Positions 37,082 through 62,645 of a DNA stretch of 64,000 bases are shown one piece after another. Source of the DNA: Saccharothrix deserti. Its GTDB lineage: Bacteria; Actinomycetota; Actinomycetes; Mycobacteriales; Pseudonocardiaceae. The notes below the pieces were generated by a model. That model worked only from the letters and a program-made list of their open reading frames with translations. It was not told the DNA's origin and ran no database searches. A program made the translations under genes and the position numbers. Where the stretch lies: positions 1-64,000 of the forward strand of contig NZ_VKAB01000023.1 in NCBI RefSeq assembly GCF_009769385.1, written 5' to 3'. How positions within the stretch are numbered: position 1 is the first letter of the stretch; the number at the start of each line of letters is the position of its first letter.

Positions 37082-37169
37082 CGAGAGTCCTACCTCCAGC
37101 CCCCGTGTGTCCTACACCCAGAACGCGTGTGTCCTACGTTCAGAATGCGTGTGTCCTACGTTCGGGACC
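37082..37169 (+). repeat. 22-bp tandem repeat, four units (family A site)
   Basis: Units begin at 37082, 37104, 37126 and 37148, exactly 22 bp apart. Unit 3 reads CGTGTGTCCTACGTTCAGAA plus TG; units 1, 2 and 4 vary at few positions (CGAGAGTCCTAC..., CGTGTGTCCTACACCC..., CGTGTGTCCTACGTTCGG...). The same unit, with GAGAG replacing GTGTG, occurs at 62531-62634. No spacers, so not CRISPR. Confidence 0.85.
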
Positions 37170-37197
37170 CCCCGAGTTGAACGCTCGCGGGGTCCGG
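37163..37197. terminator. Imperfect hairpin, possible terminator
   Basis: CGGGACCCCCCGAG (37163-37176) pairs with CTCGCGGGGTCCGG (37184-37197) at 12 of 14 positions around a 7-base loop. It follows the 22-bp repeats and precedes the response regulator gene. Confidence 0.5.
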
Positions 37198-37235
37198 GCA
37201 TAGCTGTCGCAAGGGGACAGTGCGAGGATCCGTGC

Positions 37236-37892
37236 ATGCGGGTGCTGCTGGTGGAGGACGACGAGCCGATCGCGGAATCCCTCACACGAGGTCTGAGCAG
37301 GTACGGGTTCGACGTCGAGTGGGTGCGCACCGGAACCGAGGCGCTCGCGGCCGAGCCGACCGACATGGTCCTGGTCGACCTCGGCCTGCCCGACATGGAC
37401 GGCCTGGACGTGTGCCGCGAGCTGCGCGCCCGCGGTGACGTGCCGATCATCGTGATCAGCGCGCGGGCCGACGAGACGGACCGCGTGGTCGGCCTGGAGA
37501 TCGGCGCGGACGACTACGTCTCCAAGCCGTTCGGCGTCCGCGAAGTGATCGCCCGGATGCGCGCGGTGATGCGCCGGGTCAGACCCGCGACGGCCCAGCC
37601 GGACGCGACGGTGTCGAGCAGGCTGACCATCGACCGGCGTGGTCGGCGGGTGTACGTCGACGGTGTCGAGATCACCTTGACGCCCAAGGAGTACGACCTG
37701 CTGGCGTTCCTCGCCGAAGCACCGGACGCGGTGTTCACCAGAGAACAGATCATGGAAGCGGTCTGGGACGCGAACTGGTTCGGCCCGACCAAGACGCTCG
37801 ACGTGCACGTCGGCGCGCTGCGGCGCAAGCTCGGTGACGCGGCCACCGTGGAGACCGTGCGCGGGGTCGGGTTCCGGTTGGTGCTGACGTGA
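37236..37892 (+). CDS. OmpR-family response regulator
   Basis: The 218-residue regulator has a receiver domain with the acidic pair VEDDE, phospho-acceptor Asp48 in VLVDLGLPDMDG, and Lys in YVSKPFG, followed by an OmpR/PhoB winged helix (ITLTPKEYDLLAFLAEAPDAVFTREQIMEAVW, then TLDVHVGALRRKLG and VRGVGFRL). I use ATG 37236, with GAGGA seven bases upstream; the longer frame upstream belongs to the shadow of the lyase gene. It overlaps the histidine kinase by GTGA, forming a two-component operon. The signal is unknown. Confidence 0.93.
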   Translation: MRVLLVEDDEPIAESLTRGLSRYGFDVEWVRTGTEALAAEPTDMVLVDLGLPDMDGLDVCRELRARGDVPIIVISARADETDRVVGLEIGADDYVSKPFGVREVIARMRAVMRRVRPATAQPDATVSSRLTIDRRGRRVYVDGVEITLTPKEYDLLAFLAEAPDAVFTREQIMEAVWDANWFGPTKTLDVHVGALRRKLGDAATVETVRGVGFRLVLT

Positions 37893-39247
37893 ACCGCCAG
37901 CTCGCCGTGAGTTACGTGGTGCTGGTCTTCGTGGCCATCGCCGCGTTCACCGTCCCGGTGGCGTTCACGCTCACCGACCAGCTGTACACCGACGAGGAGA
38001 ACTCCGCGCGCCGCGAGGCGAAGGTGGCCGCGTTGCTCCTGGCCTCCGACGACGCGCCGTCCCGGCAGGCGCTGGCCCGGCTGGTGGACGCCTACCAGGG
38101 CCAGACCCGCGGCCGGTTGGACGTCCTGACGGCCGAACGCACCGCCGTGGACCCGATGCCGCTCCCGGTCGCTGTCGACGATCCGGCGTTCACCGACGCG
38201 CTGAACGGCCAGGAGTACCTGCAGTGGCGTCACGCCGACGCGTTGCAAGCCGAAGGTCTCGTGCTGGCGGTGCCCGCCAAGGTGCCGGACGGCACGGTCG
38301 TCGGCGCCGTTCGGATCAGCTACCCGTCCGCGCCGGTGAGCACCCGGCTGTGGCAGATCTGGGGTTTCCGGGCCGCCCTCGCCGTCACGGTGCTGATCGC
38401 GGCCGCGGTGGTCGGCGTCCTGCTGGCCCGCCGGCTCACCCGCCCGCTGCGGGAGCTCAACCGGATGGCGGCCAGGCTGCGTGACGGCGACCTCGGCGCG
38501 CGGGTCGCGGAGACCGGGCCACCGGAGACCCGGACGCTCGCGGGCACGCTCAACACCGCGACCGAGACCATCGGCACCCTGGTCGGGTCGCAGCGCGCGT
38601 TCATCGGTGACGCCTCCCACCAGCTCCGCACCCCCCTGACCGCGCTGCGGCTGTCCCTGGACAACATCGCGGACGGCGTGGACGACCCGTACGTGCGCGA
38701 GGACGTCGACCACGCCACCGCCGAGGTCGTGCGGATGAGCAGGCTCGTCAACGGGCTGCTCGCGCTGGCGAGGGCCGAGTCCACCGTGGCCACGCCGGAA
38801 CCGGTGCGCATCGTCGACGTCGTGACGGACCGGTTCGACACCTGGCGCGCCGCCGCCGAGGAAGGCGGTATCCGGCTCCGGCACGACGCCGCGGACCCGG
38901 ACCTGCGCGCCCTGGCCGGCCACGGGCACCTGGAACAGGTGCTGGACAACGTGCTGTCCAACGCGTTGGGAGTGTCCCCGGACCACGCCACGATCACCGT
39001 GTCGAGCAGGCGCGAAGCCCAGAAGGCGGTGATCGAGGTGACCGACCAGGGGCCGGGCCTGACCGCGGCCGATCGGCGGCGGGCGTTCGACCGGTTCTGG
39101 CGCGGTCCGGGGCTGACCGGACGCTCCGGCTCGGGTCTCGGGCTCGCCATCGTCAAACAGCTGGTGTCCGACGACGGGGGCACGGTGAGCCTGCACGAGA
39201 CAGAGCACGGCGGTCTGTGCGTCCGGATCGTCCTGCGGGCTGCCTAG
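37889..39247 (+). CDS. Sensor histidine kinase
   Basis: This 452-residue kinase has two TM helices (about 8-28 and 161-180), an extracytoplasmic sensor domain between them, a HAMP segment (RRLTRPLRELNRMAARL), the H-box with His244 in ASHQLRTPLTALR, the N-box LDNVLSNALG, and G-boxes DQGPGL and GSGLGLAIVKQL. The start GTG 37889 overlaps the regulator stop. It phosphorylates the paired OmpR-type regulator; the sensed signal is unknown. Its stop is 3 bp from the convergent lipoprotein gene. Confidence 0.92.
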   Translation: MNRQLAVSYVVLVFVAIAAFTVPVAFTLTDQLYTDEENSARREAKVAALLLASDDAPSRQALARLVDAYQGQTRGRLDVLTAERTAVDPMPLPVAVDDPAFTDALNGQEYLQWRHADALQAEGLVLAVPAKVPDGTVVGAVRISYPSAPVSTRLWQIWGFRAALAVTVLIAAAVVGVLLARRLTRPLRELNRMAARLRDGDLGARVAETGPPETRTLAGTLNTATETIGTLVGSQRAFIGDASHQLRTPLTALRLSLDNIADGVDDPYVREDVDHATAEVVRMSRLVNGLLALARAESTVATPEPVRIVDVVTDRFDTWRAAAEEGGIRLRHDAADPDLRALAGHGHLEQVLDNVLSNALGVSPDHATITVSSRREAQKAVIEVTDQGPGLTAADRRRAFDRFWRGPGLTGRSGSGLGLAIVKQLVSDDGGTVSLHETEHGGLCVRIVLRAA

Positions 39248-39249
39248 GG

Positions 39250-39789
39250 TCAGCTCTTCTTCTCGGGCATGGCGGACGAGTGGTGGTTGACGATCAGCCA
39301 CTTGCCGCCGACCTTCTCGTACGCGTACGTGTAGCGGGCCTCGACCTTGCTGCCGTCCTTGGCGAAGGTGAACCGGTAGATGCCGGCGTCGATCGCGGCG
39401 TTCGGCCCGAGCACCTTCACGTGGCGCTCCAGGATCTCGCCGCTGGGCTTGTTCTCCAGGAAGTGCTGGAAGTAGTCGACGATCTCGGCCCGGTCGGAGC
39501 GGACGTTGTTCGACAGCGTGGGCAGCAGCACGCCGTCGGGGGCGTAGAGGTCGGCGACCTTCTGCGCGTCACCCGTGGCCAGCGCCTGGTTCCAGCCGGT
39601 GAACAGCGCCTCGACCTCCTGCGTGGTCGGCTGGGAGACCGCGACGGCGCTGGCGTTGGCGGTTGTGGCGGCGGCCGGCTGTTCGTTGCCGGCGGCGGCG
39701 CCACCGCCGCATGCGGTGAGCGTGAGGGCCAAGGCCGCCGCACCCGCGACGGCTCCGATACGAACACGCCCGATGTTACGCATTGTCAT
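39250..39789 (-). CDS. SnoaL/NTF2-like (DUF4440-type) lipoprotein
   Basis: The 179-residue protein carries a lipoprotein signal peptide (ALALTLTA-Cys27-GGG) and an NTF2-like domain of the SgcJ/EcaC type: EVEALFTGWNQALATGDAQKVADLYAPDGVLLPTLS at about 58-93, then YFQHFLENKPSGEI and IVNHHSSAMP at the end. Family members bind small ligands or act as isomerases; here no function is predictable. ATG 39789 or 39783. The intergenic region 39790-39964 shows no gene I can support. Confidence 0.82.
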   Translation of the reverse strand: MTMRNIGRVRIGAVAGAAALALTLTACGGGAAAGNEQPAAATTANASAVAVSQPTTQEVEALFTGWNQALATGDAQKVADLYAPDGVLLPTLSNNVRSDRAEIVDYFQHFLENKPSGEILERHVKVLGPNAAIDAGIYRFTFAKDGSKVEARYTYAYEKVGGKWLIVNHHSSAMPEKKS

Positions 39790-39964
39790 CTCCTTGTGTT
39801 GCCTGGCTGTTGGTGTCCACTTTCGTGTGACACCCGCCAGCAGCCGGACAGGAGAAAGACAGCGCTCGGTAAGGATTGCTCCAAGAAATCACCGGGCAGG
39901 TCGGCCGTAGGTAAACGACCAGGTGAGCGGCGCGGCCGAGGCGGCCACGCCGGTCACCACCAGC

Positions 39965-41560
39965 TCAGATCTTGCCGACGCCCGCGCCGGCCATGACGGT
40001 GGCCTTGACGCTGTTCGGGTCCGCCGGCGTGTAGGCGTAGTAATCCCGCGCCTCCTGCACACTGCCACTGCAGTCGGGCTGGCCCGCCTCGTCACCGGCG
40101 AAGACGTTGTTGCGGGCGACGCACCGCCCACTCGGGCCGGCGTAGTTGTTGCTCACCGGCTCTTCGACGTCCTCGAAGTAGTTGCCCTCGATGAGGCAGC
40201 CCGCGTCCGCCTGGCACGCCACGCCGACGTCCGTGTTGTGGAAGTAGTAGTTGTTGAACAGGTGCACCGGCTCGCCGAACCGGACCCGCGGGTTGCGCTG
40301 CGGTGTCTCGTTGAACCAGTTGTGGTGGTAGGTCACCTTCAACCGGCCGACGTCCTGGGCGCCGTTGTCGTCGTCGTGGCCCAGCAGCATGTTCTTGGCG
40401 TGGTTGTGGGTGTGGTTCCAGGAGACCGTGACGTAGCTGGACCCCCGCTTGATGTCGATCGCGCCGTCGTAGCCGTTCGACAGGTCGTTGTGGTCGAGCC
40501 ACACGTGGTGGGAGAACATCTGCACGTTGATCGCGTCGTCCGCCCAGTTGCGGAACACCAGGTTGCGGACGATGACGTTGTGCACGGCGTCGGCGGGCGG
40601 CGCGGTGATCTCGGAGATCGGCAGGCCGATGTTCAGGCCGCCGCCGGTGAGGCCGGACGTGGAGCCGATGCCGACGATCGTCTTGTCCGACGTGACGTCG
40701 TGCATGGGGCCGGGCAACGCGATCATGCCGCGAACGCAGATGTTCAACGGCCCGGCCTGGGCGATCGCGGCCAGGAACTCCGCCGCCGTGTCGACCTCGA
40801 TGGTGGGTCCGCCCGCGCCGCCGGTGGTGCCGTTCTGGCCCCACGCGTTGACCGAGGCGAAGCCGATCGGACTGCCCGAGGTGGCGCAGGTGCCGGGCTG
40901 CGGCGGGGTGGTGGTCGTGGTCGTCGTGCTCGTCGTCGGCCCGCCGGGTCCCGGTGTGTCGGTCACGAGCACGTCGTCGAAGGACGCGGACGCGTAGTAG
41001 GCCGCGAAGCCGATCCGCCCGCTGCCGAACGTGGTGTCGGTCGCGGACGCCACCAGGTTGCCGTCGAGGAAGCCGCGCAGCGTGCTGCCGAACACCTCCA
41101 GCCGCAACGTGTACCAGGTGCCGACCGTGACGGCGGCCGGTGCGGTCGCCAGGGTGGTGAGCCCGCCGCCGACCCTCTTGCCGAGCACCACCGAGCCCGC
41201 GTTCGACAGGCCCAGGTAGTAGTAGTTGCTCGTGTTCTGCACGCGGGCGGTCACCGCGACGTGCCGGCCCGTCCCGTTGAACCCGGTCGGCTTGATCCGC
41301 GCCTGCGCCGACTGGCCGGACCAGACCGAGCCCGCCAGCGCCCTGGCGTCGGAGCTGGTGCCGGACTGGCGCCAGACCCGCGATCCGTCGGTGGCCACGG
41401 TCCAGCTGCCGCCGCTGGAACTCCAGCCGGTCGAGTTGCCGTCCTCGAAGTCGTCACCGAACAGCGTGGCGGCCGATGCCGACGGCACCACCAGAAGTGC
41501 CACCGCGAAGATGAATCCACTCGCCACCGCGGCGAGCGCGGCTAATCTGTGCTTGCTCAA
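39965..41560 (-). CDS. Secreted PL1 pectate lyase with N-terminal concanavalin-like module
   Basis: The 531-residue enzyme has a signal peptide (about 1-35), a concanavalin-like binding module (LFGDDFEDGNSTGWSSSGGSW to FDDVLVTDTPG, about 37-200), a Thr-rich linker (TTSTTTTTTTPP), and a PL1 right-handed beta-helix with GGGLNIG, NVIVRNLVFRNWADDAINVQ, the Ca-binding WLDHNDLSNGYDGAIDIKRGS and the catalytic Arg in ETPQRNPRVRFGEPVHLFNNYY. It cleaves polygalacturonate. I place the start at TTG 41560 because an ideal CAGGAGG stands six bases upstream; the ORF extends further but without a signal-peptide start. Confidence 0.9.
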   Translation of the reverse strand: MSKHRLAALAAVASGFIFAVALLVVPSASAATLFGDDFEDGNSTGWSSSGGSWTVATDGSRVWRQSGTSSDARALAGSVWSGQSAQARIKPTGFNGTGRHVAVTARVQNTSNYYYLGLSNAGSVVLGKRVGGGLTTLATAPAAVTVGTWYTLRLEVFGSTLRGFLDGNLVASATDTTFGSGRIGFAAYYASASFDDVLVTDTPGPGGPTTSTTTTTTTPPQPGTCATSGSPIGFASVNAWGQNGTTGGAGGPTIEVDTAAEFLAAIAQAGPLNICVRGMIALPGPMHDVTSDKTIVGIGSTSGLTGGGLNIGLPISEITAPPADAVHNVIVRNLVFRNWADDAINVQMFSHHVWLDHNDLSNGYDGAIDIKRGSSYVTVSWNHTHNHAKNMLLGHDDDNGAQDVGRLKVTYHHNWFNETPQRNPRVRFGEPVHLFNNYYFHNTDVGVACQADAGCLIEGNYFEDVEEPVSNNYAGPSGRCVARNNVFAGDEAGQPDCSGSVQEARDYYAYTPADPNSVKATVMAGAGVGKI

Positions 41561-41775
41561 TCGAGCCTCCTGTTGCGAATCCGGCAGTTCACGCTGATGA
41601 ATGCGTTCACGCAGGTGAACCCGGTTGCCGACAAACGGAGGCGGCGGTTGGCGGCACGCTGTCGAAAGTGACTTCAATTACTGCAGGTTGACGGTAATGG
41701 CTTGTTTCCGGCGCGTCAACGGCACATCACCACGACCCTTCGACGCAATCGCGACGAGCGGTTGGTCGCGAATAG

Positions 41776-42936
41776 TCACCTGCCCAGCGAGGCACCGACG
41801 AGCACCATGCGCAGGACGCGTTCGGTGGCGTCGGTGAGCAGGCTTGCCGCCTGGTCCATGGCCTCGGCCAGCGGCACGGGCGCGGCCAGGATGCCCGCGT
41901 ACGCGTCGATGCCCACGTCGTGGCTCCGCCAGGCTCCGCTGCCGATGGTCCCGGCCAGCGCGATCACCGGCTTGCCGTGCCGCTTGGCGCGCCGGGCCAC
42001 CTCGGCGGGCACCTTCCCGTGCGGGGTCTGGAAGTCGATCGTGCCCTCGGCGGTGATCACCAGGTCGGCGTCGGCCAGCCGGGCGTCGAGGTCGACGTGC
42101 TCCAGCATGACGTCGAAGCGTGGCAACAACGTCGCGCCGAGCACGGCGGCCAGCCCCGCCCCGAGCCCGCCGGACGCGCCGCCACCGGCCACGTGCCGCA
42201 CGTCCACGCCGAACGTCGAGTGCAGCACGTCGGCCCAGCGGTCCATCGCCGCGGCCAACTGCTCGACCTGCTCGGGGCCGGCGCCCTTCTGCGGTCCGAA
42301 GACCCTGGCGACACCACGGTCGCCGCACAGCACGTTGTGCGGGTTGCAGGCCAGCGTGAGCTCGATCTTCTCCAACCGGGAGTCGAGCCCGGACACGTCG
42401 ATGGTGTGCAGTTTCGCCAGCGCGGCCCCACCCGGCTCCAGGTCCGCACCACGTTCGTCGAGCAGTCGGGCACCCAACGCCTGCAGCGCACCCGCACCGC
42501 CGTCCGAAGTCCCGGAATCGCCGCAGCCGACCAGGACCCGCTCACAACCGGCGTCCAGCGCCGCGCCGATCAACTCGCCCACGCCGTAGGTCGTGGTCAC
42601 CCCGGGGTCGCGGGCGTCCGCAGGCACCAGCCGCAACCCGGCCGCCGCCGCCATCTCCACCACCGCAGTCCGCGGCCCGGGACCGCCTAGCACCGCGAAG
42701 TGCGACCGCACCGGCCGACCGACCGGTCCGCTCACCACCACCGGCACCAACTCACCACCGGTGGCCGCCGCCAACGCCTTCGCCGAACCCTCGCCGCCGT
42801 CCACCAGCGGAACCTGGTCGACCACCGCGCCGGGCACGACGCGACGCACGCCCGCCGCGATGGCCTCGGCCACTTCCTCCGCGTCGAGGCATTCCTTGAA
42901 CCCGCTCGGTGCGACGACGAACTTCAGCGGCATCAT
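41776..42936 (-). CDS. Glycerate kinase (GarK/GlxK family)
   Basis: This 386-residue enzyme matches glycerate 2-kinases: VVAPSGFKECLDAEEVAEAIAAGVRR at the start, VPLVDGGEGSAKAL, GVGELIGAALDAGCERVLVGCGDSGTSDGGAG near 120-150, ARVFGPQKGAGPEQVEQL near 215, and VADLVITAEGTIDFQTPHGKVPAEVAR near 290. It phosphorylates glycerate, linking it to glycolysis. ATG 42936 (followed by a second ATG) has GGAGG 7 bases upstream. The neighbouring SLC13-type transporter could import glycerate or a related acid. Confidence 0.92.
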   Translation of the reverse strand: MMPLKFVVAPSGFKECLDAEEVAEAIAAGVRRVVPGAVVDQVPLVDGGEGSAKALAAATGGELVPVVVSGPVGRPVRSHFAVLGGPGPRTAVVEMAAAAGLRLVPADARDPGVTTTYGVGELIGAALDAGCERVLVGCGDSGTSDGGAGALQALGARLLDERGADLEPGGAALAKLHTIDVSGLDSRLEKIELTLACNPHNVLCGDRGVARVFGPQKGAGPEQVEQLAAAMDRWADVLHSTFGVDVRHVAGGGASGGLGAGLAAVLGATLLPRFDVMLEHVDLDARLADADLVITAEGTIDFQTPHGKVPAEVARRAKRHGKPVIALAGTIGSGAWRSHDVGIDAYAGILAAPVPLAEAMDQAASLLTDATERVLRMVLVGASLGR

Positions 42937-43107
42937 GACGTTTCCTCCACAGTGGACGGTCAGCGGAACCCCCAAGCCACGTCACCCGAGTGAGCGACTT
43001 GAGCGTGAATGGAAGATCTTGGGAAACTTTTCCGGCGGCCGGAACGTTGCCGGGAAAGAAGGAGGCGGCGCGGCGAGCACAGGCGCCGGATTCACTCAGC
43101 GCTTCAC

Positions 43108-44682
43108 TCAGCGCAGCGGCAGGCCGAGGTGTGGCCAGACGGTGAGGGCGAACCCGAGGACGAGCGCGGCGTTGAGTGGTGCGAGCAGTGCCGAGAGCTT
43201 GAGCAGGTCGGCGCGGGTGAAGGTGGCGGTGCCGGGCACGGTCGCGAAGATCGCCACCGGCTTGGCCGAGGACGGCGTGGTGTGGCAGAAGCCCGCCGCC
43301 GCGGTCGAGGCGAAAGCCACGGCCGCCGGGTTCAGCCCGAGCGCCGCGGCGAGCGGGATGAGCACCGGGATCAGCACGCTCGACCGGGCGGAACGGGACT
43401 GCACCAGCACGTGCGCCACCGTGCTGACGCCCACGACCGCGGCCATGAACGCCAGGTCGCCGCCGCCGAGACCCGTCATGTGCCCGGTCAGCCAGGCGGC
43501 GGCCCCCGAACCGGTCAACGCCGTGCCGAGGGCTGCGGTCGCGGCCATGAACAGCAGCAACGACCACGGGACCCCGGCCAGCGCTGGGCCGAGTGCGACG
43601 GTGCCCAGCTTCGGCGACGTGATCACCAGCGCGGCGGCGAGCGCCACGACCGCGGCCGGGACACCGTGCCAGGGCTCGCAGATCCAGGCCGCCGACACCA
43701 GCGCCAGCACGATCAGCGCCCGGCGCTCCGCCGGTTCGAGGCGACCGGGGCGCGGGGCGTTGGCCAGCCGGCCCAGCCGGTCGGCGTCGACGCGCAGCCG
43801 TCGCACGCGGTCGGACCGGCGGGTGAACACCAGCAGCACGAGTTCGGCCGCCGCGTGCGACGAGACCACGGCGAGCGGCACCCCGAGCAGCAGCCACTGG
43901 CCGAAGCCGATGCCCGCACCGGTCGCGGTGAGCAGCAGGTGGCTGGTGATCAGGTGCGCACCGGCGCCGATCAGGGTCGCCACGGCGGAGAGCAGGATGA
44001 CGGTGGGGAACAGCAGGGACAGCGCGCGAACCACCCGTGGCCGGTCGGCCAGACCTTTGGCCAGCGCGAGGAACACGGGCAGGACCAGCGCGGCGCGTCC
44101 CGAGGTGGCCGGCACCGCGAACGCGGTCAGCACCAAGGCGACCGTGACCAGGTGCGCCAGTTGCCGGACGCTGCGCGCCCTGGCGACCAGACCGACCGCC
44201 ACCCGCGCGGGCAACCCGGTCGCACCGACACCGGCCGCCAGGGCGAAAGCGGCGATCAACAACCAGATCGTGTCACCGCCGAGCGCGCCGAACAGCTGAT
44301 CGCCGCCGAGTACGCCGAGCATGACCAGGAGCAGCGCGGCGGCGAGGGCGACGTACGTGTCGTCCAGCCCGGTGAACACCCACGCGGCGACCGCGACGGT
44401 GAACACCAGCAACGTCGCCTTGCCGTCAGCCGGAAGCCCCGTGCCACCGATGAACAGGAACAGCGCCACCGCGCCCACGCCCAGCACACCGATCGCGGCC
44501 TTCACCGCGGTCCGCTTGCGCCCCGGCCGGCTCGCTGACTTCCGGCCAGATGAGTTCCGGCCCGGCGCGTTCCGGCCAGATGAGTTCCGGCCTGGCACGG
44601 TCCCGATCGGCACGGTCCCGATCGGCACGGTCCTGGCCGACGCCCAGGGTGGCGCCGCGTTCACGTCTGTCGCGACCTTCAT
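43108..44682 (-). CDS. SLC13/DASS-family anion transporter
   Basis: The 524-residue membrane protein has about 12 TM helices and the DASS/Na+-sulfate-dicarboxylate fold: VFTGLDDTYVALAAALLLVML, GGDTIWLLIAAFALAAGVGATGLPARVA, and the C-terminal PSSAKPVAIFATVPGTATF with the substrate-binding Ser-Asn/Thr type motif. The first 60 residues are a repetitive basic tail (VPIGTVPIGTVPGRNSSGRN...) encoded by tandem 15-bp repeats at about 44541-44640, unusual for the family. Substrates are likely dicarboxylates, sulfate or glycerate-like acids, the last by context. Confidence 0.83.
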   Translation of the reverse strand: MKVATDVNAAPPWASARTVPIGTVPIGTVPGRNSSGRNAPGRNSSGRKSASRPGRKRTAVKAAIGVLGVGAVALFLFIGGTGLPADGKATLLVFTVAVAAWVFTGLDDTYVALAAALLLVMLGVLGGDQLFGALGGDTIWLLIAAFALAAGVGATGLPARVAVGLVARARSVRQLAHLVTVALVLTAFAVPATSGRAALVLPVFLALAKGLADRPRVVRALSLLFPTVILLSAVATLIGAGAHLITSHLLLTATGAGIGFGQWLLLGVPLAVVSSHAAAELVLLVFTRRSDRVRRLRVDADRLGRLANAPRPGRLEPAERRALIVLALVSAAWICEPWHGVPAAVVALAAALVITSPKLGTVALGPALAGVPWSLLLFMAATAALGTALTGSGAAAWLTGHMTGLGGGDLAFMAAVVGVSTVAHVLVQSRSARSSVLIPVLIPLAAALGLNPAAVAFASTAAAGFCHTTPSSAKPVAIFATVPGTATFTRADLLKLSALLAPLNAALVLGFALTVWPHLGLPLR

Positions 44683-44774
44683 GACGACAAGCCTGTTGCC
44701 GGCGGCTGAACGACCCGTGAGCGGTTGATGAAACCGCCCTCATCTACGCGCCCCGACAACAACCCGCACCGGGC

Positions 44775-47225: not shown

Positions 47226-47289
47226 TAAACGACCATGAGGATTTCTTCATGAAGCGACGCGGCAGCGGCCCGTCGGCCGCCCGCAGCCG

Positions 47290-48183: not shown

Positions 48184-48206
48184 GGGCGTCCTCCCTCGAC
48201 GAGGAT

Positions 48207-52594: not shown

Positions 52595-52595
52595 C

Positions 52596-53891: not shown

Positions 53892-53947
53892 GGAGCGAAC
53901 GTAAGCCCGAAAAACTTCGGCGCACGCCGAACCGTCGAACGCGCACA

Positions 53948-54634: not shown

Positions 54635-54640
54635 GACGTC

Positions 54641-55390
54641 TCAGCTCGTCAGCCACGACGGCAGCCACGAGGAGTTCCCCGTCGGCAGCACGTCGACCAC
54701 CACGCACGTGATGTTGTCCGGCCCGCCACCCGCATTGGCCGCCTCGATCAACGCGCGCACGGTCTCGTCACCGTCCGAGGAAGCCGCCAGCAGCCCGGCG
54801 ATGTCCGCCGCGCCGATCACGTCCGACAGCCCGTCCGAGCAGATCAGGTACCGGTCGCCCGCCTCGACGTCCTGGAAGAACAGGTCCGGGTCGTGCGCGC
54901 TGCCCGCCTGGAGCGCGCGCATGAGCATGGACCGGCCGGGGTGCTCGGCGGCCTGTTCGGCGGCCATCCGACCGTCGTCCACCAACGCCTGGACCATGGT
55001 GTGGTCCCTGGTGATCTGGGTCAGCTCGCCCTCGCGGACGAGGTAGCAGCGCGAGTCGCCGATGTGCCCGACCGCGAACCGCTCACCGTCCCAGAGCAGC
55101 GCGGTGAGCGTGGTGCCCATGCCGCGCATGTCGAAGTTCTCCTCGGCCAGGTCGGTCAGCCGGATGGCGATCTCCCGTGCCGCGCCGGACAGTTCACCGA
55201 GTGGGTCGTCGGCCTCCACGTCGAGGTCGGCCAGCACCGCCACCGCGATCGAACTCGCCACTTCGCCGTACGCGTGTCCGCCCATGCCGTCGGCGACGGC
55301 GAACAGGCGTTCGCTGAAGTACACGGAGTCCTCGTTCGCTTCACGGCGCAGGCCGGGGTCGGTGCCGACGGCGTACCGGAGCGCATACAT
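54641..55390 (-). CDS. PP2C-family protein serine/threonine phosphatase
   Basis: This 249-residue phosphatase shows all main PP2C (PPM) motifs: LRREANEDSVY, VADGMGGHAYGEVAS, GMGTTLTALLW, VGHIGDSRCYLVREGEL, ICSDGLSDVI and GPDNITCVVVDV, which supply the aspartates for two metal ions. It is the soluble Stp/PstP type, without a TM helix. It removes phosphate from Ser/Thr of proteins phosphorylated by Hanks-type kinases. ATG 55390. It overlaps nothing and is convergent with the ArsR gene. Confidence 0.94.
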   Translation of the reverse strand: MYALRYAVGTDPGLRREANEDSVYFSERLFAVADGMGGHAYGEVASSIAVAVLADLDVEADDPLGELSGAAREIAIRLTDLAEENFDMRGMGTTLTALLWDGERFAVGHIGDSRCYLVREGELTQITRDHTMVQALVDDGRMAAEQAAEHPGRSMLMRALQAGSAHDPDLFFQDVEAGDRYLICSDGLSDVIGAADIAGLLAASSDGDETVRALIEAANAGGGPDNITCVVVDVLPTGNSSWLPSWLTS

Positions 55391-55445
55391 GTCGCACAGT
55401 GAATCACCCGCACGGGTGCCCGTGAGCAGTGCATGTCCAATCCGG

Positions 55446-56486
55446 TCACCTGGGGCGGCCGTAGAACTCGCTCAGGAGGAGCATGGCGGCACCCGCCGCG
55501 ACCACGTCGTCACCCAGCGGGGTGATCGACACGTCCACCGGCAGCCACTCGTCCTTGGGCAGCCGGGCACGCACACCGTCGAGGTAGGCGGTGGGTTCGG
55601 CGAGCACCGCGCGGCCGGCCAGCACCACGTGGTCGATGTCGAGCAACTGCACCAGATCGGCCACGGCCACGCCCACTATGGACGTCGCCTCGACCAGGTC
55701 ACCCCGTGCGGCGGCGAGGTTGTGCAGCGCCTCGATGCACCCGCTGCGGCCGCAGACGCAGGGCGGGCCGTCGAGCTGGATCGTGGTGTGCCCGTACTCG
55801 CCCGCGTTGGTCCGCACGCCCCGGTGCACGCGACCGTCGAGCAGCATCCCCACGCCCAGGCCGGTGCCGACGAGCACGAGCACCGCGTCGCGCAGTTCCT
55901 CGCCGCGCCGCCACGCCTCGGCGACGACCGCCGTGTTGGTGTCCTTGTCGAGCACGACCGGCAGGCCCAGCCGTTGTTCGGCCAACGCGCGCAGCGGCAC
56001 GTCGTGCCAGGCGGTCAGACCGGTCGGGTAGTGCACCACGCCGGTGCGGTGGTCGAGCGGTCCGACGAACCCGATGCCCACCCCGAGGAGCCGGTCGCTG
56101 CGCAGACCGTCGACCAGTCGGTTCAGCTCCTCCACGAACGTCGGCGGGTCGAAGTCGCGCGGCAGCGGCGCGACGGCGCGGTCCAGCACGGTGCCCGCGA
56201 GGTCGGTGAGCACGACGCGCAGTTCGTCCCGCTCGACCTGGGCGCCGAGCGCGAGCCTGCTGTCCGCGACGAGCTTGAGCAGGGTGCGCGGCTTGCCGAC
56301 GCCGACGTTGCGGGTGCCGGACTCGACCAGCAGGCCGTCGCCGATGAGCCGGCTCACCACCTTGGACACCGCTTGCGGGGTGAGGCCGCTGCGATCGGCC
56401 AGTTCGACCCTCGTGACCGCGCCCGACCGGGCCAAGCCCAGCACTACCGCGTCGTTGTACCCCCGCAGGAAGCGCAAGTTGGCCAC
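55446..56486 (-). CDS. ROK-family transcriptional regulator
   Basis: This 346-residue protein has an N-terminal winged helix (NDAVVLGLARSGAVTRVELADRSGLTPQAVSKVVSRLIGDGLLVESG, about 11-57) and a ROK sugar domain with GVGIGFVGPLD, LDKDTNTAVVAEAW and the signature NAGEYGHTTIQLDGPPCVCGRSGCIEA. It should repress or control sugar genes in response to a sugar or sugar phosphate. It is divergent from the Gfo/Idh gene, 53 bp away, and likely governs it. Unlike the regulator at 16507, it is outside any evident transporter operon. Confidence 0.9.
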   Translation of the reverse strand: MANLRFLRGYNDAVVLGLARSGAVTRVELADRSGLTPQAVSKVVSRLIGDGLLVESGTRNVGVGKPRTLLKLVADSRLALGAQVERDELRVVLTDLAGTVLDRAVAPLPRDFDPPTFVEELNRLVDGLRSDRLLGVGIGFVGPLDHRTGVVHYPTGLTAWHDVPLRALAEQRLGLPVVLDKDTNTAVVAEAWRRGEELRDAVLVLVGTGLGVGMLLDGRVHRGVRTNAGEYGHTTIQLDGPPCVCGRSGCIEALHNLAAARGDLVEATSIVGVAVADLVQLLDIDHVVLAGRAVLAEPTAYLDGVRARLPKDEWLPVDVSITPLGDDVVAAGAAMLLLSEFYGRPR

Positions 56487-56539
56487 AACTACATCATCGC
56501 ACCTAGCCAGTTACTACACGCCGTTGCTTTAATCGGCCC

Positions 56540-57559
56540 ATGGGTCTCCGCACCGGACTGCTCGGCTACGGCATCGCCGGCCGTGTGTTCCACGCACCGC
56601 TGATAGCCGCCACCAGCGGCTTGGAGCTGAGCGCCGTCGTCACCGCCGATCCGGTGCGACGCGAGCAGGCTCTGGCCGCCCACCCCGGCGTCGACCTGCC
56701 GCACACGGCCGAGGAGCTGTTCGCGCTCGACCTGGACCTGGTCGTGGTCGCCACCCCGAACCGCACGCACGTGCCGCTGGCGCTGGCCGCGATCGAGGCC
56801 GGTCTGCCGGTCGTGGTGGACAAGCCGTTCGCGCCGACGTCCGCCGACGCCCGTCGGGTGCTCCAGGCGGCGCGGTACCGGAGCGTGCCGGTGACGGTGT
56901 TCCAGAACCGGCGGTGGGACAGCGACTTCCGCACGATCCGGTCGCTCGTGGCCGACGGCGCGCTGGGCGCGGTGACGCGGTTCGAGTCGCGGTTCGAGCG
57001 GTGGGTGCCGGAGGTGTGGGACAACTGGCGCGAGTTCGGTGCCGCCGAGGAGGCGGGCGGGCTGCTGTACGACTTGGGCGCGCACCTCGTCGACCAGGCG
57101 TTGGAGCTGTTCGGGCCGGTGTCCTCGGTGTACGCGGAACTGGACCTGCGGCGGCCCGGCGTCGAGGTGGACGACGACGTCTTCGTGGCGTTGACCCACC
57201 TGAACGGGGTCCGCTCGCACCTGTGGGCCGGCTCCGCCGCGCCGCACCACGGACCTCGGTTCCGCGTGCTCGGCACGACCGGCGCATACGTTTCGCACGG
57301 CTTGGACCGCCAGGAGGACGCCCTGTCCTCCGGCAAACCCTTTGACGATTTGTCGACATCCGGCGAGTTGGGGTTGTTGACCGACGTCCAGGAGGTCGTC
57401 GGCCTGCCCGGTGCCTACTCCGAGTTCTACCGACTGCTGGTCGCCGCCCTGGCAGGCGACGGCCCGCTGCCGGTCGAACCGGAGTCCGCGGTGTACGCGT
57501 TGGAAGTGATCGAGGCGGCGTTCACCTCCGCCCGGACCGGACAGGTGGTGTCGCTGTGA
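56540..57559 (+). CDS. Gfo/Idh/MocA-family oxidoreductase
   Basis: The 339-residue NAD(P)-dependent oxidoreductase has the Rossmann start GLLGYGIAGRVFHAPLIAATSGLEL, the DKP motif (VVVDKPFAPTSADARRV, catalytic Lys about residue 96), QNRRWDSDF and GGLLYDLGAHLVDQALELFGPV, plus the C-terminal half intact. It resembles YdgJ/YvaA-type scyllo-inositol/sugar dehydrogenases. The substrate is probably a cyclitol or sugar. ATG 56540. It overlaps the UPF0303 gene by GTGA, giving a two-gene operon next to its likely ROK repressor. Confidence 0.9.
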   Translation: MGLRTGLLGYGIAGRVFHAPLIAATSGLELSAVVTADPVRREQALAAHPGVDLPHTAEELFALDLDLVVVATPNRTHVPLALAAIEAGLPVVVDKPFAPTSADARRVLQAARYRSVPVTVFQNRRWDSDFRTIRSLVADGALGAVTRFESRFERWVPEVWDNWREFGAAEEAGGLLYDLGAHLVDQALELFGPVSSVYAELDLRRPGVEVDDDVFVALTHLNGVRSHLWAGSAAPHHGPRFRVLGTTGAYVSHGLDRQEDALSSGKPFDDLSTSGELGLLTDVQEVVGLPGAYSEFYRLLVAALAGDGPLPVEPESAVYALEVIEAAFTSARTGQVVSL

Positions 57560-58011
57560 GCTTGCTGGAGACGTTGGTCGAGCAGGAGTCCCGGCTGGTG
57601 TTCACGTCGTTCGACAACGAGGTGGCGCTGGCGCTGGGCGCGTTCCTGCTGGAGGCCGCGCGGGACCGGTCGTTGCCGGTGACGATCTCGGTGCGGCGCG
57701 GGCAGCAACGCCTGTTCCACGCCGCCCTGCCGGGGACGTCGGCGGACAACGACGAGTGGATCGACCGGAAGAGCCGGGTGGTGGACCGGTACGCGCAGAG
57801 CTCGTACCGGGTCGGCGAGAACTTCCGCGCGAGCGGCAAGACGTTCGAAGTGGACTCCCGTCTGGACCCGGACCGCTATGCGGCGCACGGCGGCGTGTTC
57901 CCCGTGAGCGTGGCCGGCGTCGGGATGGTGGGCACCGTCGGGGTGTCCGGCCTGCCCCAAGCCGAGGACCACGCTTTCGTGGTGGAGCAGCTGGAGAAGT
58001 TCCTGGCCTGA
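57556..58011 (+). CDS. UPF0303/HbpS-like (DUF336-type) protein
   Basis: The 151-residue protein belongs to the UPF0303 (heme-degrading-type, HbpS-like) family: ALALGAFLLEAARDRSLPVTISVRRGQQRLFHAALPGTSADNDEWIDRKSRVVDRYAQSSYRVGE and GVFPVSVAGVGMVGTVGVSGLPQAEDHAFVVEQLEKFL. Family members are found fused or next to sugar and inositol genes; the biochemical role is unknown. GTG 57556 overlaps the upstream stop. Confidence 0.88.
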   Translation: MSLLETLVEQESRLVFTSFDNEVALALGAFLLEAARDRSLPVTISVRRGQQRLFHAALPGTSADNDEWIDRKSRVVDRYAQSSYRVGENFRASGKTFEVDSRLDPDRYAAHGGVFPVSVAGVGMVGTVGVSGLPQAEDHAFVVEQLEKFLA

Positions 58012-58119
58012 TCACGGGCGCCTGACCACGGACAACTGACCACGGGCGCATACGGCTGTCCGCCCAGCCGCGCCCTCCCCCCGACGCCGTCTTCCCCCCG
58101 GACGTGTCGTCGGACCGGC

Positions 58120-58158
58120 GTGAGGGGCTTCCCACCCCATCCCTGGGAAGCCCCTCAC
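58120..58158. terminator. Hairpin terminator after UPF0303 gene
   Basis: A perfect 15-bp stem, GTGAGGGGCTTCCCA (58120-58134) with 58144-58158, and a 9-base loop, 109 bp past the UPF0303 stop. The rest of 58012-58238 shows no gene. Confidence 0.8.
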
Positions 58159-58238
58159 CGCCTTCAGAGCCCAGTGCTACCGAACTCGCATTGCCGACCC
58201 GTTATGCTACCTAACCTATCTCCAGGTATCATTAACGG

Positions 58239-58250
58239 CCGAACGTTCGG
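58239..58250. promoter_or_regulatory. 12-bp palindrome before the Fic gene
   Basis: CCGAACGTTCGG is a perfect palindrome 12 bp before the GTG of the Fic gene. It follows an AT-richer stretch (58200-58235) that probably holds the promoter. A regulator site, possibly for autoregulation by the C-terminal winged helix of the Fic protein, is plausible. Confidence 0.45.
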
Positions 58251-58262
58251 AGTTCAGTAGCA

Positions 58263-59414
58263 GTGTTCCGCGACCGGTTCTCACCACCCCAACGCGACCA
58301 CGTGGTGCGGTCGCTGGAAGGTTTCGACGCCTTCCTGCCGCCGCCGCTGCCGCCTGTCGTGCGGTTCGACGGCGACTTGGTGCGCAAGCTCTCGGCCGCG
58401 GACCGGGCTCTCGGCGAACTGGCCGGGGTCGGGCGGACACTGCCCAGCCCACACCTGTTCACCCGCGCCCTGCTCCGCCGGGAAGCGGTGTTGTCCAGCC
58501 GGATCGAAGGCACCCAGGCGACCCTGTCCGACCTGGTCCTGTTCGAGATCGACCGCTCGGACCGCTCGGACGGCGACGTCCGGGAAGTCGCGAACTACGT
58601 CTCGGCGATGGACTACCTGCTCATCGACGCCGAGTCCGCACCCGTGAGCCTGTTCAGCCTGCGGGAAGCGCACCGGATCCTGCTCACCGGCGTGCGCGGC
58701 GAAACGGCCGACCCGGGTCGTTTCCGCGACTCCCAGAACTGGATCGGCTCACCGGGTGACCCGATCGACCACGCGTCGTACGTGCCGCCTCCACCGGAGC
58801 GCTTGCGCGACTGCCTGGAAGCGTTCGAAAACCACCTCAGGGGCGCCCACGAACTTCCTCCCTTGGTCGAGATCGCGTGCCTGCACTACCAGTTCGAGGC
58901 GATCCACCCGTTCCGCGACGGCAACGGTCGGGTCGGCAGGCTGCTCGTGTCACTGCTGCTGGTGAAGTGGGGCCTGCTCCCTGGCCCGATGCTCGACTTC
59001 TCCGCCTACATCGAGCCCAGGCGCCAGGACTACTACGCACGTCTCCAAGCCGTCTCGACGAACGGCGCTTGGGAGGCGTGGATCGAGTTCTTCCTCCAGG
59101 TCGTCGCGATGCAGGCGAAGGACGTCCTGCGCCGCGCGAACGAACTGCAGCGGTTGCGGGACGAATACCGGGAACGGGTGACCGGTGTCCGCTCCTCCAG
59201 CCTGTTGCCCAAGCTGGTGGACGCACTGTTCGAGACACCCGCCCTCACCATCGGCACGGTCCAGGAGGTGCTGGGTGTGACGCACCGCGCCGCCACCGTC
59301 AACGTGGAGAAGCTGCTCGAAGAGGGCATGGTGGTCGAACTGGAGCGGTCCGGGCGGGTGCGCCGGTTCCTGGCCAACCGGATCCTCGACGTGGTCAACG
59401 GCGCGAGTCGGTGA
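58263..59414 (+). CDS. Class II Fic protein (AMP-transferase type)
   Basis: The 383-residue protein has the Fic motif HPFRDGNGRVGR at 215-226 with catalytic His215, and an N-terminal inhibitory helix with Ser78-x-x-x-Glu82-Gly83 (SSRIEG), the class II arrangement in which Glu82 should block productive ATP binding. The flap and the helix before it (ACLHYQFEAIHPF) are typical. Residues about 310-380 form a winged-helix region (LFETPALTIGTVQEVLGVTHRAATVNVEKLLEEGMVVELERSGRVRRF). Probable function is AMPylation of a cellular protein under relief of inhibition. GTG 58263. Confidence 0.92.
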   Translation: MFRDRFSPPQRDHVVRSLEGFDAFLPPPLPPVVRFDGDLVRKLSAADRALGELAGVGRTLPSPHLFTRALLRREAVLSSRIEGTQATLSDLVLFEIDRSDRSDGDVREVANYVSAMDYLLIDAESAPVSLFSLREAHRILLTGVRGETADPGRFRDSQNWIGSPGDPIDHASYVPPPPERLRDCLEAFENHLRGAHELPPLVEIACLHYQFEAIHPFRDGNGRVGRLLVSLLLVKWGLLPGPMLDFSAYIEPRRQDYYARLQAVSTNGAWEAWIEFFLQVVAMQAKDVLRRANELQRLRDEYRERVTGVRSSSLLPKLVDALFETPALTIGTVQEVLGVTHRAATVNVEKLLEEGMVVELERSGRVRRFLANRILDVVNGASR

Positions 59415-59457
59415 GGGCGCCCGAAGCCGGGAGCACTCACCGACCCTGAAACCAAGG

Positions 59458-60561
59458 TCAGCAGAACACCTCGTTCAGCATCTCGTTGTAGCCGGCGATG
59501 TCGCCCGGGTCCGGGGCGGACGTCAGGGACGCCACCAGGCGGGTTTTCGTGTCCGCTGTGCTCACCACCAGGCTGCTGTAGCCGGGGGTGCTGCCGCCGT
59601 GCCCCCAGACCGTCACGCCGCACGGCAGTTCGGTCGCCTCGATGCCCAAGGCGTAGCCACGCGTGTTGGGCAGCACGGACGTCAGCTCCGCCTGCTGCGC
59701 CGGACGCAGCAGGCGGCCGTCCAGCAGCGCGTCCACGAACCGGTCCAGGTCGGCTGTCGTGGAGATCATCTCGCCCGCCGCGTACGCGACCGACGGGTTG
59801 AACTCGGTGACGTCCACGACCTGCCCGTTCGCCCGGTAGTAGCCGTGTGCGTGCGGGCCGGGGATGCCGGTTCGGACGCCGGGCACGGACGTCGCGCCCA
59901 GACCCAACGGGCGCAGGACGCGTTGCTTGACGGCCGCCTCGTACGGCCTTCCGGTGACCTTCTCGACCAGCATCCCGGCGACGACGTAGTTCGTGTTCGA
60001 GTAGCGCCAGTCCGTGCCGGGCGGGAAGTACAACGGCTTCGCGGTGGCCAGCGCGACCAGCTCGGCCGGCGTCCACGTCTTGTACCGGATCGTCTCGAAG
60101 CCGGCCGGGTCGAGCGGCAGCGCGGACGTGTAGTTGTACAGGCCGCTGGTGTGCTGGAGCACGTGCCGCACGGTGATCTTGTCGCCGTCCGGCAGCAGGC
60201 CCGGCAGGTACCGCTGCACCGGCGCGTCGAGCTCCACCTTCCCCTCGCCGACCAACTGGAGCACGACGGTCGACACGAACGTCTTGGTGATGCTGCCGGC
60301 CCGGAACCGGCCGTCGGTAGGCACGGGCTGCGGCGAGTCGACCCGCGCCGTGCCGCTGCGGGCGGTGAACTGGTGCCGCCCGTCGGTGACCCGGACCTGC
60401 ACCCCTTGCGCGCCGGTGCGCGCCATCTCGTCCAACGCCCGCTGGACGACCTGCCGGTCGATCCGGCCCTGCTCCACCACCGGCTCGGCCACGGCCGTGC
60501 CGGTGAGCCCCAGCGCCGCCAACCCCACTACGGCGGCGAGGGCGATCCCCCTCTTGCCCAT
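59458..60561 (-). CDS. Secreted serine hydrolase (beta-lactamase/DD-carboxypeptidase fold)
   Basis: The 367-residue exported protein has a signal peptide (about 1-26) and the serine beta-lactamase/class C-like fold: Ser-Ile-Thr-Lys (RAGSITKTFVS, about residue 91-94), Tyr-Ser-Asn (WRYSNTNYVVAGML) and His-Gly-Gly (VWGHGGSTPGY). It resembles actinomycete D-alanyl-D-alanine carboxypeptidases and esterases of family S12. I use ATG 60561, which has a good GGGAGG; the preceding TTG is a weaker option. It is divergent from the chitinase gene across a DasR-type region. Confidence 0.9.
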   Translation of the reverse strand: MGKRGIALAAVVGLAALGLTGTAVAEPVVEQGRIDRQVVQRALDEMARTGAQGVQVRVTDGRHQFTARSGTARVDSPQPVPTDGRFRAGSITKTFVSTVVLQLVGEGKVELDAPVQRYLPGLLPDGDKITVRHVLQHTSGLYNYTSALPLDPAGFETIRYKTWTPAELVALATAKPLYFPPGTDWRYSNTNYVVAGMLVEKVTGRPYEAAVKQRVLRPLGLGATSVPGVRTGIPGPHAHGYYRANGQVVDVTEFNPSVAYAAGEMISTTADLDRFVDALLDGRLLRPAQQAELTSVLPNTRGYALGIEATELPCGVTVWGHGGSTPGYSSLVVSTADTKTRLVASLTSAPDPGDIAGYNEMLNEVFC

Positions 60562-60630
60562 CAACGTTTCCTCCCTCTCGACGTGAGGACTCCGAGTCTG
60601 GCCGTGCGGCGACGTCCATACGTCGGACCC

Positions 60631-60774
60631 TGGTCTGAGAGGCGATCAGACTTTAGGCTCATCCACCCTTAGTGGCCGCCCGCCGCCGCGGAATCGGTTC
60701 CGAGGGTTCAGACCCTAGGCCGTTCGAGTGACGAGAATGGTCTAGACCTTGACCGTGAAGTGGTCTGAACCACA
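60631..60774. promoter_or_regulatory. DasR-type (dre) site array before chitinase gene
   Basis: AATGGTCTAGACCTTG (60736-60751) and AGTGGTCTGAACCACA (60759-60774) match the DasR consensus AGTGGTCTAGACCACT at 12 or more positions each. Further half-sites are TGGTCTGA at 60631, its near-complement TCAGACTT at 60646, and TTCAGACC at 60708. All lie in the 253-bp region between the divergent serine hydrolase and chitinase genes. Confidence 0.8.
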
Positions 60775-60817
60775 TCGTGATCTCAACCCTGCACTCCTTC
60801 CCTGCACGAGGAGCACG

Positions 60818-62443
<1,626 letters not shown>

Positions 62444-62462
62444 CCCTCACGCACCCTGCACA

Positions 62463-62500
62463 CGAAGGGCCCTGCGGACACCTGCCCGCAGGGCCCTTCG
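62463..62500. terminator. Terminator after chitinase gene
   Basis: A perfect 15-bp stem, CGAAGGGCCCTGCGG (62463-62477) with 62486-62500, and an 8-base loop, 19 bp past the chitinase stop. Confidence 0.9.
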
Positions 62501-62513
62501 GCCGTCCTGAACG

Positions 62514-62645
62514 TTGAATTCGGGTGTCCCCAACGTAGGACACACGCACTCTGAACGTAGGACTCTCGCGGTCTGAACGTAGGACTCTCGCGAGAGTCCT
62601 ACGTTCGCGTTGCGAGAGTCCTACGTTCAGGTGCCCTGAATTCAA
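62514..62645. repeat. 22-bp repeat array, inverted and forward units (family B site)
   Basis: Minus-oriented units start at 62531, 62553 and 62575 and plus-oriented units at 62591 and 62613, all 22 bp long. Each contains CCTACGTT(C) or its complement (AACGTAGG). Units at 62575-62590 and 62591-62606 form a perfect 32-bp palindrome around CTCTCG/CGAGAG. The whole block is bounded by TTGAATTC (62514) and GAATTCAA (62638). It lies between convergent chitinase and carboxypeptidase genes and matches the four units at 37082-37169. Confidence 0.85.

What the first reader, a model, noticed from the sequence alone, without database searches (positions are those of the whole stretch)
37082..62645. Dispersed intergenic repeat family with a strict 22-bp period at two distant sites
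At 37082-37169 there are four direct 22-bp units (core GTGTGTCCTACGTTCAGAA). At 62531-62634 there are three inverted and two direct 22-bp units (core GAGAGTCCTACGTTCA), with a perfect 32-bp palindrome at 62575-62606 and an outer frame of TTGAATTC/GAATTCAA. The period of two helical turns, the swap of GTGTG for GAGAG, and the shared CCTACGTT core point to a sequence-specific feature rather than chance. The two sites are 25 kb apart and both intergenic. There are no spacers or cas genes, so it is not CRISPR, and no known element in my memory matches. It could be binding arrays for a nucleoid or regulatory protein, a REP-like palindromic element, or a structural RNA.
Basis: seen in the sequence. 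Interest (0 to 1): 0.72.

Follow-up and report, generated by a model that had tools for sequence, protein, structure and literature searches.

The report
Repeat arrays just behind genes
Many soil actinobacteria carry arrays of a 22-letter DNA unit close behind the stop codons of ordinary genes; each species uses its own spelling of the unit, and the arrays look like binding sites for an unknown protein that marks or enforces the end of transcription.

Summary
Confirmed, and larger than reported. Both sites are arrays on a 22-bp lattice. The core GTCCTACGTTCA occurs 151 times in this 10.8-Mb genome, reversed control 0. Arrays sit at gene 3' ends, mostly between converging genes, often within a few bases of the stop codon. 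In Saccharothrix, 228 of 283 arms end in a distinct terminal unit, and tail-to-tail arms meet at about 30, 41 or 52 bp, suggesting helical phasing. Orthologous sites keep arrays while unit number and core spelling change. Looser lattice searches ring in 46 of 297 Pseudonocardiaceae genomes and in two of another actinobacterial family; the loci I read there are again mostly at gene 3' ends. Convergent gaps with palindromic arrays rarely have a separate terminator hairpin (6 of 35; array-free 42 of 52). Arms of one locus match no better than arms of different loci, so pairing seems not to be selected. Best reading: binding arrays of an unidentified, co-evolving DNA-binding protein acting as bidirectional transcription boundaries. 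Boundary function is inferred; no protein was found. A selfish REP-like element is the main rival.

The parts
37082..37169 (+). site 1: four 22-bp units, head nearest the stop codon (TAA at 37075-37077, 4 bases away); the first two are degenerate in the GTT part of the core
37171..37192 (+). site 1 terminal (tail) unit CCCGAGTTGAACGCTCGCGGGG, one base off the lattice
62503..62524 (-). site 2 left terminal unit CCCGAATTCAACGTTCAGGACG
62525..62590 (-). site 2: three units, minus strand
62591..62634 (+). site 2: two units, plus strand, joined head-to-head to the minus arm at exactly 22 bp
62635..62656 (+). site 2 right terminal unit CCTGAATTCAACACTCAGGCGG, two bases before the stop codon (CTA, 62659-62661) of the converging gene
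62575..62606 (.). perfect 32-bp palindrome made by the head-to-head junction
35935..37077 (+). gene upstream of site 1 (Pfam alginate lyase domain)
37236..37892 (+). gene downstream of site 1 (response regulator)
60848..62443 (+). gene left of site 2 (family 18 glycosyl hydrolase with CBM2)
62463..62500 (+). terminator-like hairpin between the stop codon and site 2; this locus keeps a separate hairpin
   Evidence: (I5)
62659..63972 (-). converging gene right of site 2 (zinc carboxypeptidase, P-domain)

Best explanation
Each 22-bp unit is one recognition site for a sequence-specific double-stranded-DNA-binding protein. The protein assembles cooperatively along the lattice. The assembled array at the 3' end of a gene acts as a transcription boundary: it stops or roadblocks RNA polymerase, and in its palindromic form does so from both sides, taking over from the usual terminator hairpin. 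Shown: the lattice, the 3'-end and stop-codon anchoring, the terminal unit, phased tail-to-tail spacing, conservation at orthologous sites, genome-specific core spelling, and the swap with hairpins. Inferred: that a protein binds, that it binds cooperatively, that the effect is on transcription, and that the core spelling follows changes in the protein. The protein is not identified.
For: Exact 22-bp lattice, also across head-to-head junctions in the genus (22 in 26 of 33). Tail-to-tail distances fall at 29-32 (46), 40-42 (5), 50-53 (12), 64 (1), 73-74 (2) and 11 (1) of 67; the 20 distances above 35 still cluster at period 10.5-11 (R 0.84-0.88) and not at 22 (R 0.39). Gap classes: in own-genome regions 18 of 54 convergent, 12 of 160 tandem and 1 of 49 divergent gaps hold an array; in named Saccharothrix loci 50 of 116, 32 of 384, 0 of 121. 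Distance from stop codon to first core unit: -5 to 8 in 39 of 99, 9 to 22 in 5, 23 to 30 in 34 (6 of 105 that are 120 or more left out). Hairpin outside the array: 42 of 52 array-free convergent gaps, 21 of 30 with one-direction arrays, 6 of 35 with palindromic arrays. Same swap at two orthologous sites in the 25 genus genomes. Arms of one locus are no more alike than arms of different loci (4.49 against 3.99, sd 0.21, mismatches per unit tail-to-tail; 5.71 against 6.05, sd 0.33, head-to-head). Core positions 10 and 11: identity 0.65 and 0.80 within genomes, 0.28 and 0.45 between (25 genomes).
Against: No cognate protein found. Gaps with one-direction arrays mostly keep a separate hairpin (21 of 30), and window site 2, though palindromic, has one too (62463-62500). 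Inverted arrays would fold into very stable RNA anyway (median MFE -116 tail-to-tail, -81 head-to-head), so the hairpin swap does not need a protein. The arm test leans on a null partly made of near-identical copies (16 of its 49 tail-to-tail pairs are from G261). In other spellings the few head-to-head junctions are 35, 35 and 64, not 22, and 5 of 12 tail-to-tail distances (13, 49, 60, 105, 116) miss the helical series or fit it only loosely. In tandem gaps the sense-strand bias is weak (16 against 5, p 0.027). Near-identical copies at many sites of G261 show recent copying, as a selfish element would give. Some arrays of other genera are not close to a stop codon (G254, L280-L282). No transcript data.
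Confidence: 0.45

Rival explanations
1. A selfish, copy-making repeat (REP/REPIN- or MITE-like, but with another enzyme) that accumulates behind stop codons because that is where it does least harm; the hairpin swap is tolerated or is exaptation.
For: In G261 the terminal-pair centre occurs as many near-identical copies across the genome, and 20 fetched sites show much the same composite of about 150 bp. Distribution across genomes is patchy. Arrays almost never lie in divergent (promoter) gaps.
Against: PF01797 (RAYT) is absent from 15 of the 18 genomes I had listed as array-bearing. Four proteins scanned from between close array pairs are housekeeping-like: HPPD and NagA above the NCBIfam cut-off, proline-dehydrogenase-like and DinG/YoaA-like below it; none of the nine proteins read there looks like a transposase to me. 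At the upp site 14 of 25 genomes share an array of the same build while unit number and spelling change. Helical tail spacing has no obvious use for a parasite other than through its own enzyme. In G261 the 48 terminal pairs avoid one part of the chromosome (R 0.54, p about 1e-6).
Confidence: 0.27
2. Purely RNA-level terminators: inverted arrays fold into long hairpins in both transcripts and no protein is involved.
For: Palindromic arrays stand where other species have hairpins; they fold very stably.
Against: 67 of 120 clusters have core units in one direction only; arms do not co-vary; 11-bp steps in the loop length matter for B-form DNA rather than for an RNA loop; non-palindromic spelling kept per genome.
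Confidence: 0.15
3. A genome-wide signal read for another purpose (chromosome organisation, DNA transfer or recognition of own-species DNA, as for DNA uptake sequences), placed at gene ends only because space is free there.
For: Genome-specific 'dialects' on a constant skeleton and inverted pairs resemble DNA uptake sequences (PMC3630211, passages read).
Against: Copy number is low: 23 to 292 exact cores per 8.7-10.9 Mb genome, clustered in arrays, against thousands of DUS, for example 5918 in a 2.4-Mb genome. No uptake or segregation protein linked. Does not explain loss of hairpins.
Confidence: 0.1
4. Chance or assembly artefact.
For: None beyond the modest in-window statistic.
Against:: tens to hundreds of copies in many independent assemblies, with reversed controls at or near zero in most.
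Confidence: 0.01

Closest known systems
REP / BIME / REPIN repeats (PMC3733652 and PMC3116915: passages seen; PMC2817692: start of abstract in a listing)
   Same: many short intergenic units, alternating orientation, stereotyped spacings, downstream of genes and between converging genes, genome-specific families
   Different: unit is not palindromic; contiguous 22-bp lattice with up to 8 units per arm; a distinct terminal unit; stop codon inside or beside the lattice; no consistent RAYT gene
DNA uptake sequence dialects of Neisseriaceae (PMC3630211, passages seen)
   Same: dialects: part of the motif constant, part changing between species; a co-evolving binding protein there (ComP)
   Different: arrays on a lattice rather than thousands of dispersed sites; far lower density; no uptake link
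Bidirectional intrinsic terminators between converging genes (recalled as a class)
   Same: position; palindromic arrays stand in their place at orthologous sites
   Different: repeat units dispersed genome-wide; one-direction arrays; helical spacing; arms not co-varying
Roadblock terminators with repeated protein sites, such as eukaryotic TTF-I/Reb1 sites (recalled, no call)
   Same: repeated directional protein sites behind genes that stop polymerase
   Different: no protein known here; bacterial; at many genes
MIRU elements of mycobacteria (recalled, no call)
   Same: short dispersed repeats overlapping stop codons
   Different: recalled as about 50 bp and in operon gaps; no 22-bp lattice or inverted arms

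Membership tests
REP / REPIN | unit is an imperfect palindrome able to form a hairpin | tested here: not met
   unit composition; compared with its own complement by eye, only ACGT is self-complementary in the CCTACGTT spelling
REP / REPIN | RAYT (Y1) transposase gene in the same genome | tested here: not met
   5 of 35 genomes; 3 of 18 that I had listed as array-bearing (G206, also a hit, turned out to have its own array spelling)
REP / REPIN | extragenic, downstream of genes, inverted pairs | tested here: met
CRISPR array | identical repeats separated by unique spacers of regular length, cas genes | tested here: not met
   units abut and themselves vary; only the last few bases vary freely; cas genes not searched
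MITE | terminal inverted repeats with target-site duplication and empty sites | tested here: inconclusive
   duplications not tested beyond reading 20 G261 sites; flanking genes of 10 of these 20 sites match array-bearing gene ends in other genomes and one matches an array-free end, in a search set that was array-selected
DNA uptake sequence | thousands of short copies per genome and an uptake receptor | tested here: not met
   counts; receptor not tested
Intrinsic terminator | local GC-rich RNA hairpin at the array itself | tested here: inconclusive
   strong folding for inverted arrays; one-direction arrays mostly have their hairpin elsewhere; U-tract not examined
Known structured RNA (Rfam 15) | match at gathering score | tested here: not met
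   0 matches at site 1; 6 matches at site 2, all below gathering score
Array of protein-binding sites | a protein that binds the unit | not testable with these tools
   needs pull-down or ChIP

The most novel reading that the evidence does not exclude
A previously undescribed gene-end system of actinobacteria: arrays of 22-bp sites with a constant skeleton and a genome-specific code of about 3 bp, often laid from stop codon to stop codon, read by a co-evolving DNA-binding factor that serves as a protein-dependent, bidirectional transcription terminator or insulator in place of hairpins. The same stop-to-stop lattice in two genomes of a distant family would mean that the system moves between lineages as a unit.
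Probability: 0.35. Interest if true: 0.9.

Novelty: new variant of a known kind. Interest (0 to 1): 0.75.

Why it matters
If the arrays are protein-dependent boundaries, bacteria would have a dedicated roadblock-type terminator used at many gene ends, which is not part of the usual two-way scheme of intrinsic and Rho-dependent termination. The changing core on a constant skeleton gives a natural experiment in co-evolution of a DNA-binding protein with its sites. If instead it is selfish, it is a large repeat family in actinomycetes without the RAYT enzyme that is thought to move REPs.

Tried and rejected
Tried without result: plasmid collection, distant blastn of 62200-63000 (the 12 matching records do not cover the array; matches start at query 454 or later, or end by 247). 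Viral contigs (7 single hits, none with a lattice pair). RAYT as the motor. Genes between close array pairs as an autonomous element. Rfam. Arm co-variation (none). A promoter-located array that might mark an autoregulated factor: in the own genome only L001, between hisF- and cold-shock-like genes named by eye; not pursued.

Literature: ten searches listed no paper that by title and abstract start is about these repeats; the library holds open-licence papers only. The S. espanaensis genome paper (PMC3469384) was searched for six words: five do not occur, 'intergenic' occurs once in a methods passage. PMC3733652, PMC3116915 and PMC3630211: passages only; PMC2817692: start of the abstract in a listing.

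Limits: gene calls come from a home-made codon-usage caller, trained on this genus and used unchanged on other genera. Regions were mostly fetched because they hold arrays, so gap-class counts compare classes within array-rich regions. Species are related, so ortholog counts are not independent. The hairpin test masks the array and, up to 30-40 bases beside it; at the two ortholog sites the array fills most of the gap, so little is left to hold a hairpin. For the counts I dropped six or more of the seven hits in other organisms by name and all loci under 66% G+C; one search kept them. In one search positions 4, 6 and 7 are invariant by construction (units were found by G[AT]GT), and four genomes have only 8 distinct units. 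G032 and G242 have high reversed-pattern counts and are left out of the 46; G088 and G159, counted, also have high reversed counts, probably because reversed units contain TGAGC.
Full report
What is there. Site 1 (37082-37192) is four direct 22-bp units and a terminal unit, starting 4 bases behind the TAA of gene 35935-37077. Site 2 (62503-62656) is a terminal unit, three units on the minus strand, two on the plus strand and a second terminal unit, all exactly 22 bp apart, between converging genes whose stop codons end at 62443 and begin at 62659. Window lattice against shuffles: 9 pairs against 0 in 12.

Genome and genus. The core GTCCTACGTTCA occurs 151 times in the 10.83-Mb genome, reversed control 0. 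Among 297 Pseudonocardiaceae genomes, 11 of the 25 in the same genus have 23 to 292 copies; the other 14 have 0-1, and other genera 0-3.

Anatomy. From 120 clusters and 362 core units the unit is C-G-[TAC]-G-[AT]-GTCCTACGTTC-[AG]-G-[GA]-A-C-[GC]. The terminal unit is CC[CT]GA[AG]TTCAACGCTCAG (by eye); 228 of 283 arms end in one. Arms run head-to-tail, meet head-to-head at 22 bp (26 of 33), or meet tail-to-tail at 29-32 (46 of 67), 40-42 (5), 50-53 (12), with single cases at 11, 64, 73 and 74. A pattern that allowed terminal pairs of 27-57 bp found them in 11 of 25 genus genomes, and all listed rows are 40, 41, 51 or 52 bp (not all matches were listed). Among 12 tail-to-tail pairs in loci with other core spellings, seven fall at 19-21, 31 or 40-41; the rest are 13, 49, 60, 105 and 116; the three head-to-head junctions there are 35, 35 and 64. 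Units get less like the consensus away from the tail: mean score 27.6 next to the terminal unit, 20.7 five units further (283 and 14 units).

Position. In own-genome regions arrays fill 18 of 54 convergent, 12 of 160 tandem and 1 of 49 divergent gaps; in named Saccharothrix loci 50 of 116, 32 of 384 and 0 of 121 (p 1.5e-7 and 4e-26). Of 31 and 98 arrays, 0 and 1 lie inside a called gene. Stop-to-first-unit distance is not random: 39 of 99 within -5 to 8, 34 of 99 at 23-30 (one more unit), 5 of 99 between. In 16 of 63 cases the last core unit is exactly 14 bp from the converging gene's stop, which puts that stop on the TCA inside the terminal unit.

Orthologous sites. Behind upp (named by NCBIfam) 14 of 25 genus genomes hold an array of the same build, with different unit numbers and cores: CCTACG, CCAACG, CGAACG, CGTACG, CATGCG. 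Behind a glycosyltransferase-like gene, 9 genomes hold the lattice by script count; G261 has a remnant, and G159 only a 5-base gap. A hairpin outside the array (50-nt window, -20 kcal/mol or lower) is present at 1 of 14 array-bearing upp sites against 7 of 8 array-free ones (three gaps too short), and at 0 of 9 against 9 of 11 at the second site (three array-free gaps and G159 too short; G261 not counted; G206, counted array-free, has its own repeat spelling there). A G261 array site whose left gene matches window gene 8763-10802 has, in the window, a hairpin at 10809-10841 instead. Across convergent gaps: 42 of 52 array-free, 21 of 30 one-direction, 6 of 35 palindromic. Window site 2 is an exception: it keeps a hairpin at 62463-62500.

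Copying. G261 has 48 terminal pairs, many with one of a few near-identical centres; 20 fetched sites share much of a composite of about 150 bp. At two of these sites (upp; the L029/L107 site) orthologous genes in other species carry arrays with other centres, so copies at least sometimes stand where older arrays stood rather than in empty DNA. Flanking genes of 10 of the 20 sites match array-bearing gene ends elsewhere, one an array-free end, in an array-selected search set. This fits gene conversion between arrays as well as transposition.

Protein or RNA. If arms had to pair, the two arms of a locus should match each other better than arms of different loci in the same genome. They do not: 4.49 against 3.99 mismatches per 22 tail-to-tail (49 pairs), 5.71 against 6.05 head-to-head (26 pairs). 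Together with helical spacing and spelling kept per genome, this favours recognition of single units in double-stranded DNA. RAYT transposase is not the partner. No partner was found.

Wider family. A spelling-tolerant lattice (GTCSWACG, 22 apart) gives 48-329 hits in 14 of 25 genus genomes, 122 and 109 in two genomes of genus g31, and 6-20 in five more genomes; reversed controls are 0 or 1 (59 of 297 have at least one hit). The lattice CGAGT-N17-CGAGT-N17-CGAGT rings in 62 of 297, with up to 293 hits, in many other genera. Counting genomes with at least 6 hits in either scan gives 46 of 297 (my tally, G032 and G242 excluded for high controls). Context was read only for some: in 40 distinct loci (50 rows, 10 of them overlapping copies) from 12 genomes, 21 are convergent, 11 tandem, 2 divergent, 6 lack a neighbour, 0 are inside genes; in 20 loci from G031, G148, G143, G268 and G088, 9 are convergent, 7 tandem, 0 divergent, 4 lack a neighbour (tallied by eye). 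Three loci of G254 (L280-L282) share flanking sequence and lie about 200 bp or more from called genes. Per-genome consensus (25 genomes) shows a CGCGAGT...TTC skeleton, with positions 10 and 11 alike within genomes (0.65, 0.80) and unlike between them (0.28, 0.45); positions 9 and 17 behave similarly. In the class scan (394 genomes, 21 with any match) only G582 (68) and G637 (36), of another family, stand out; a narrower pattern had found only the own genome. Of ten fetched loci from these two, six lie between converging genes, some nearly from stop to stop (L295, L297, L298), three are tandem and one divergent.

Mechanism. The most economical reading is a cooperative DNA-binding protein that marks gene ends and blocks polymerase. 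The lattice, position, spacing, spelling and hairpin swap are shown; binding, blocking and co-evolution are inferred. A selfish repeat with its own unknown enzyme explains copying and patchiness at least as well, but does not by itself predict the helical tail spacing or the loss of hairpins.

Novelty. No paper describing these arrays came up in ten searches of the open-licence library, which is not proof of absence. It works most like BIMEs and, in its dialects, like uptake sequences, but fails a defining test of each.

Noticed in passing
G582 and G637 (loci L292-L301), another actinobacterial family: The same CGAGT 22-bp lattice, with units unlike those of Pseudonocardiaceae, runs nearly from stop codon to stop codon in several loci (L295, L297, L298), while the other genomes of that genus (g91) in the scan have 0-3 hits.
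   Followed up: partly
G206 (L272-L279) and own genome L004 near 1390-1480: Another spelling (CGAGTTATGCGTTCAGACACCG-like) fills gaps in G206, and similar units flank a CCTACG array in the own genome, as if spellings had replaced each other.
   Followed up: partly
head units of arrays, e.g. window 37082-37125 and many loci: Units next to the stop codon often carry ACCTCCAG or ACACCCAG instead of ACGTTCAG: either decay or a distinct C-rich head unit (one search counts CCTACCTCCA 19 and CGAACCTCCA 12 among 283 first units).
   Followed up: partly
G261, single 9.69-Mb contig: The 48 terminal pairs crowd into about 60% of the chromosome; only one lies between 0.55 and 4.5 Mb.
   Followed up: partly
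G242 and G032: Both the CGAGT lattice and its reversed control are high (233 against 54, 73 against 54), perhaps because the units there contain TGAGC when reversed.
   Followed up: no
L280, L281, L282 (G254): Three arrays sit inside a longer shared sequence away from called genes, which looks like a repeated element of its own.
   Followed up: no
L205, L207, L208 (own genome): Mosaics such as ---+++---+++ in one gap keep the lattice; in L207 and L208 the tail spacing is 31.
   Followed up: no
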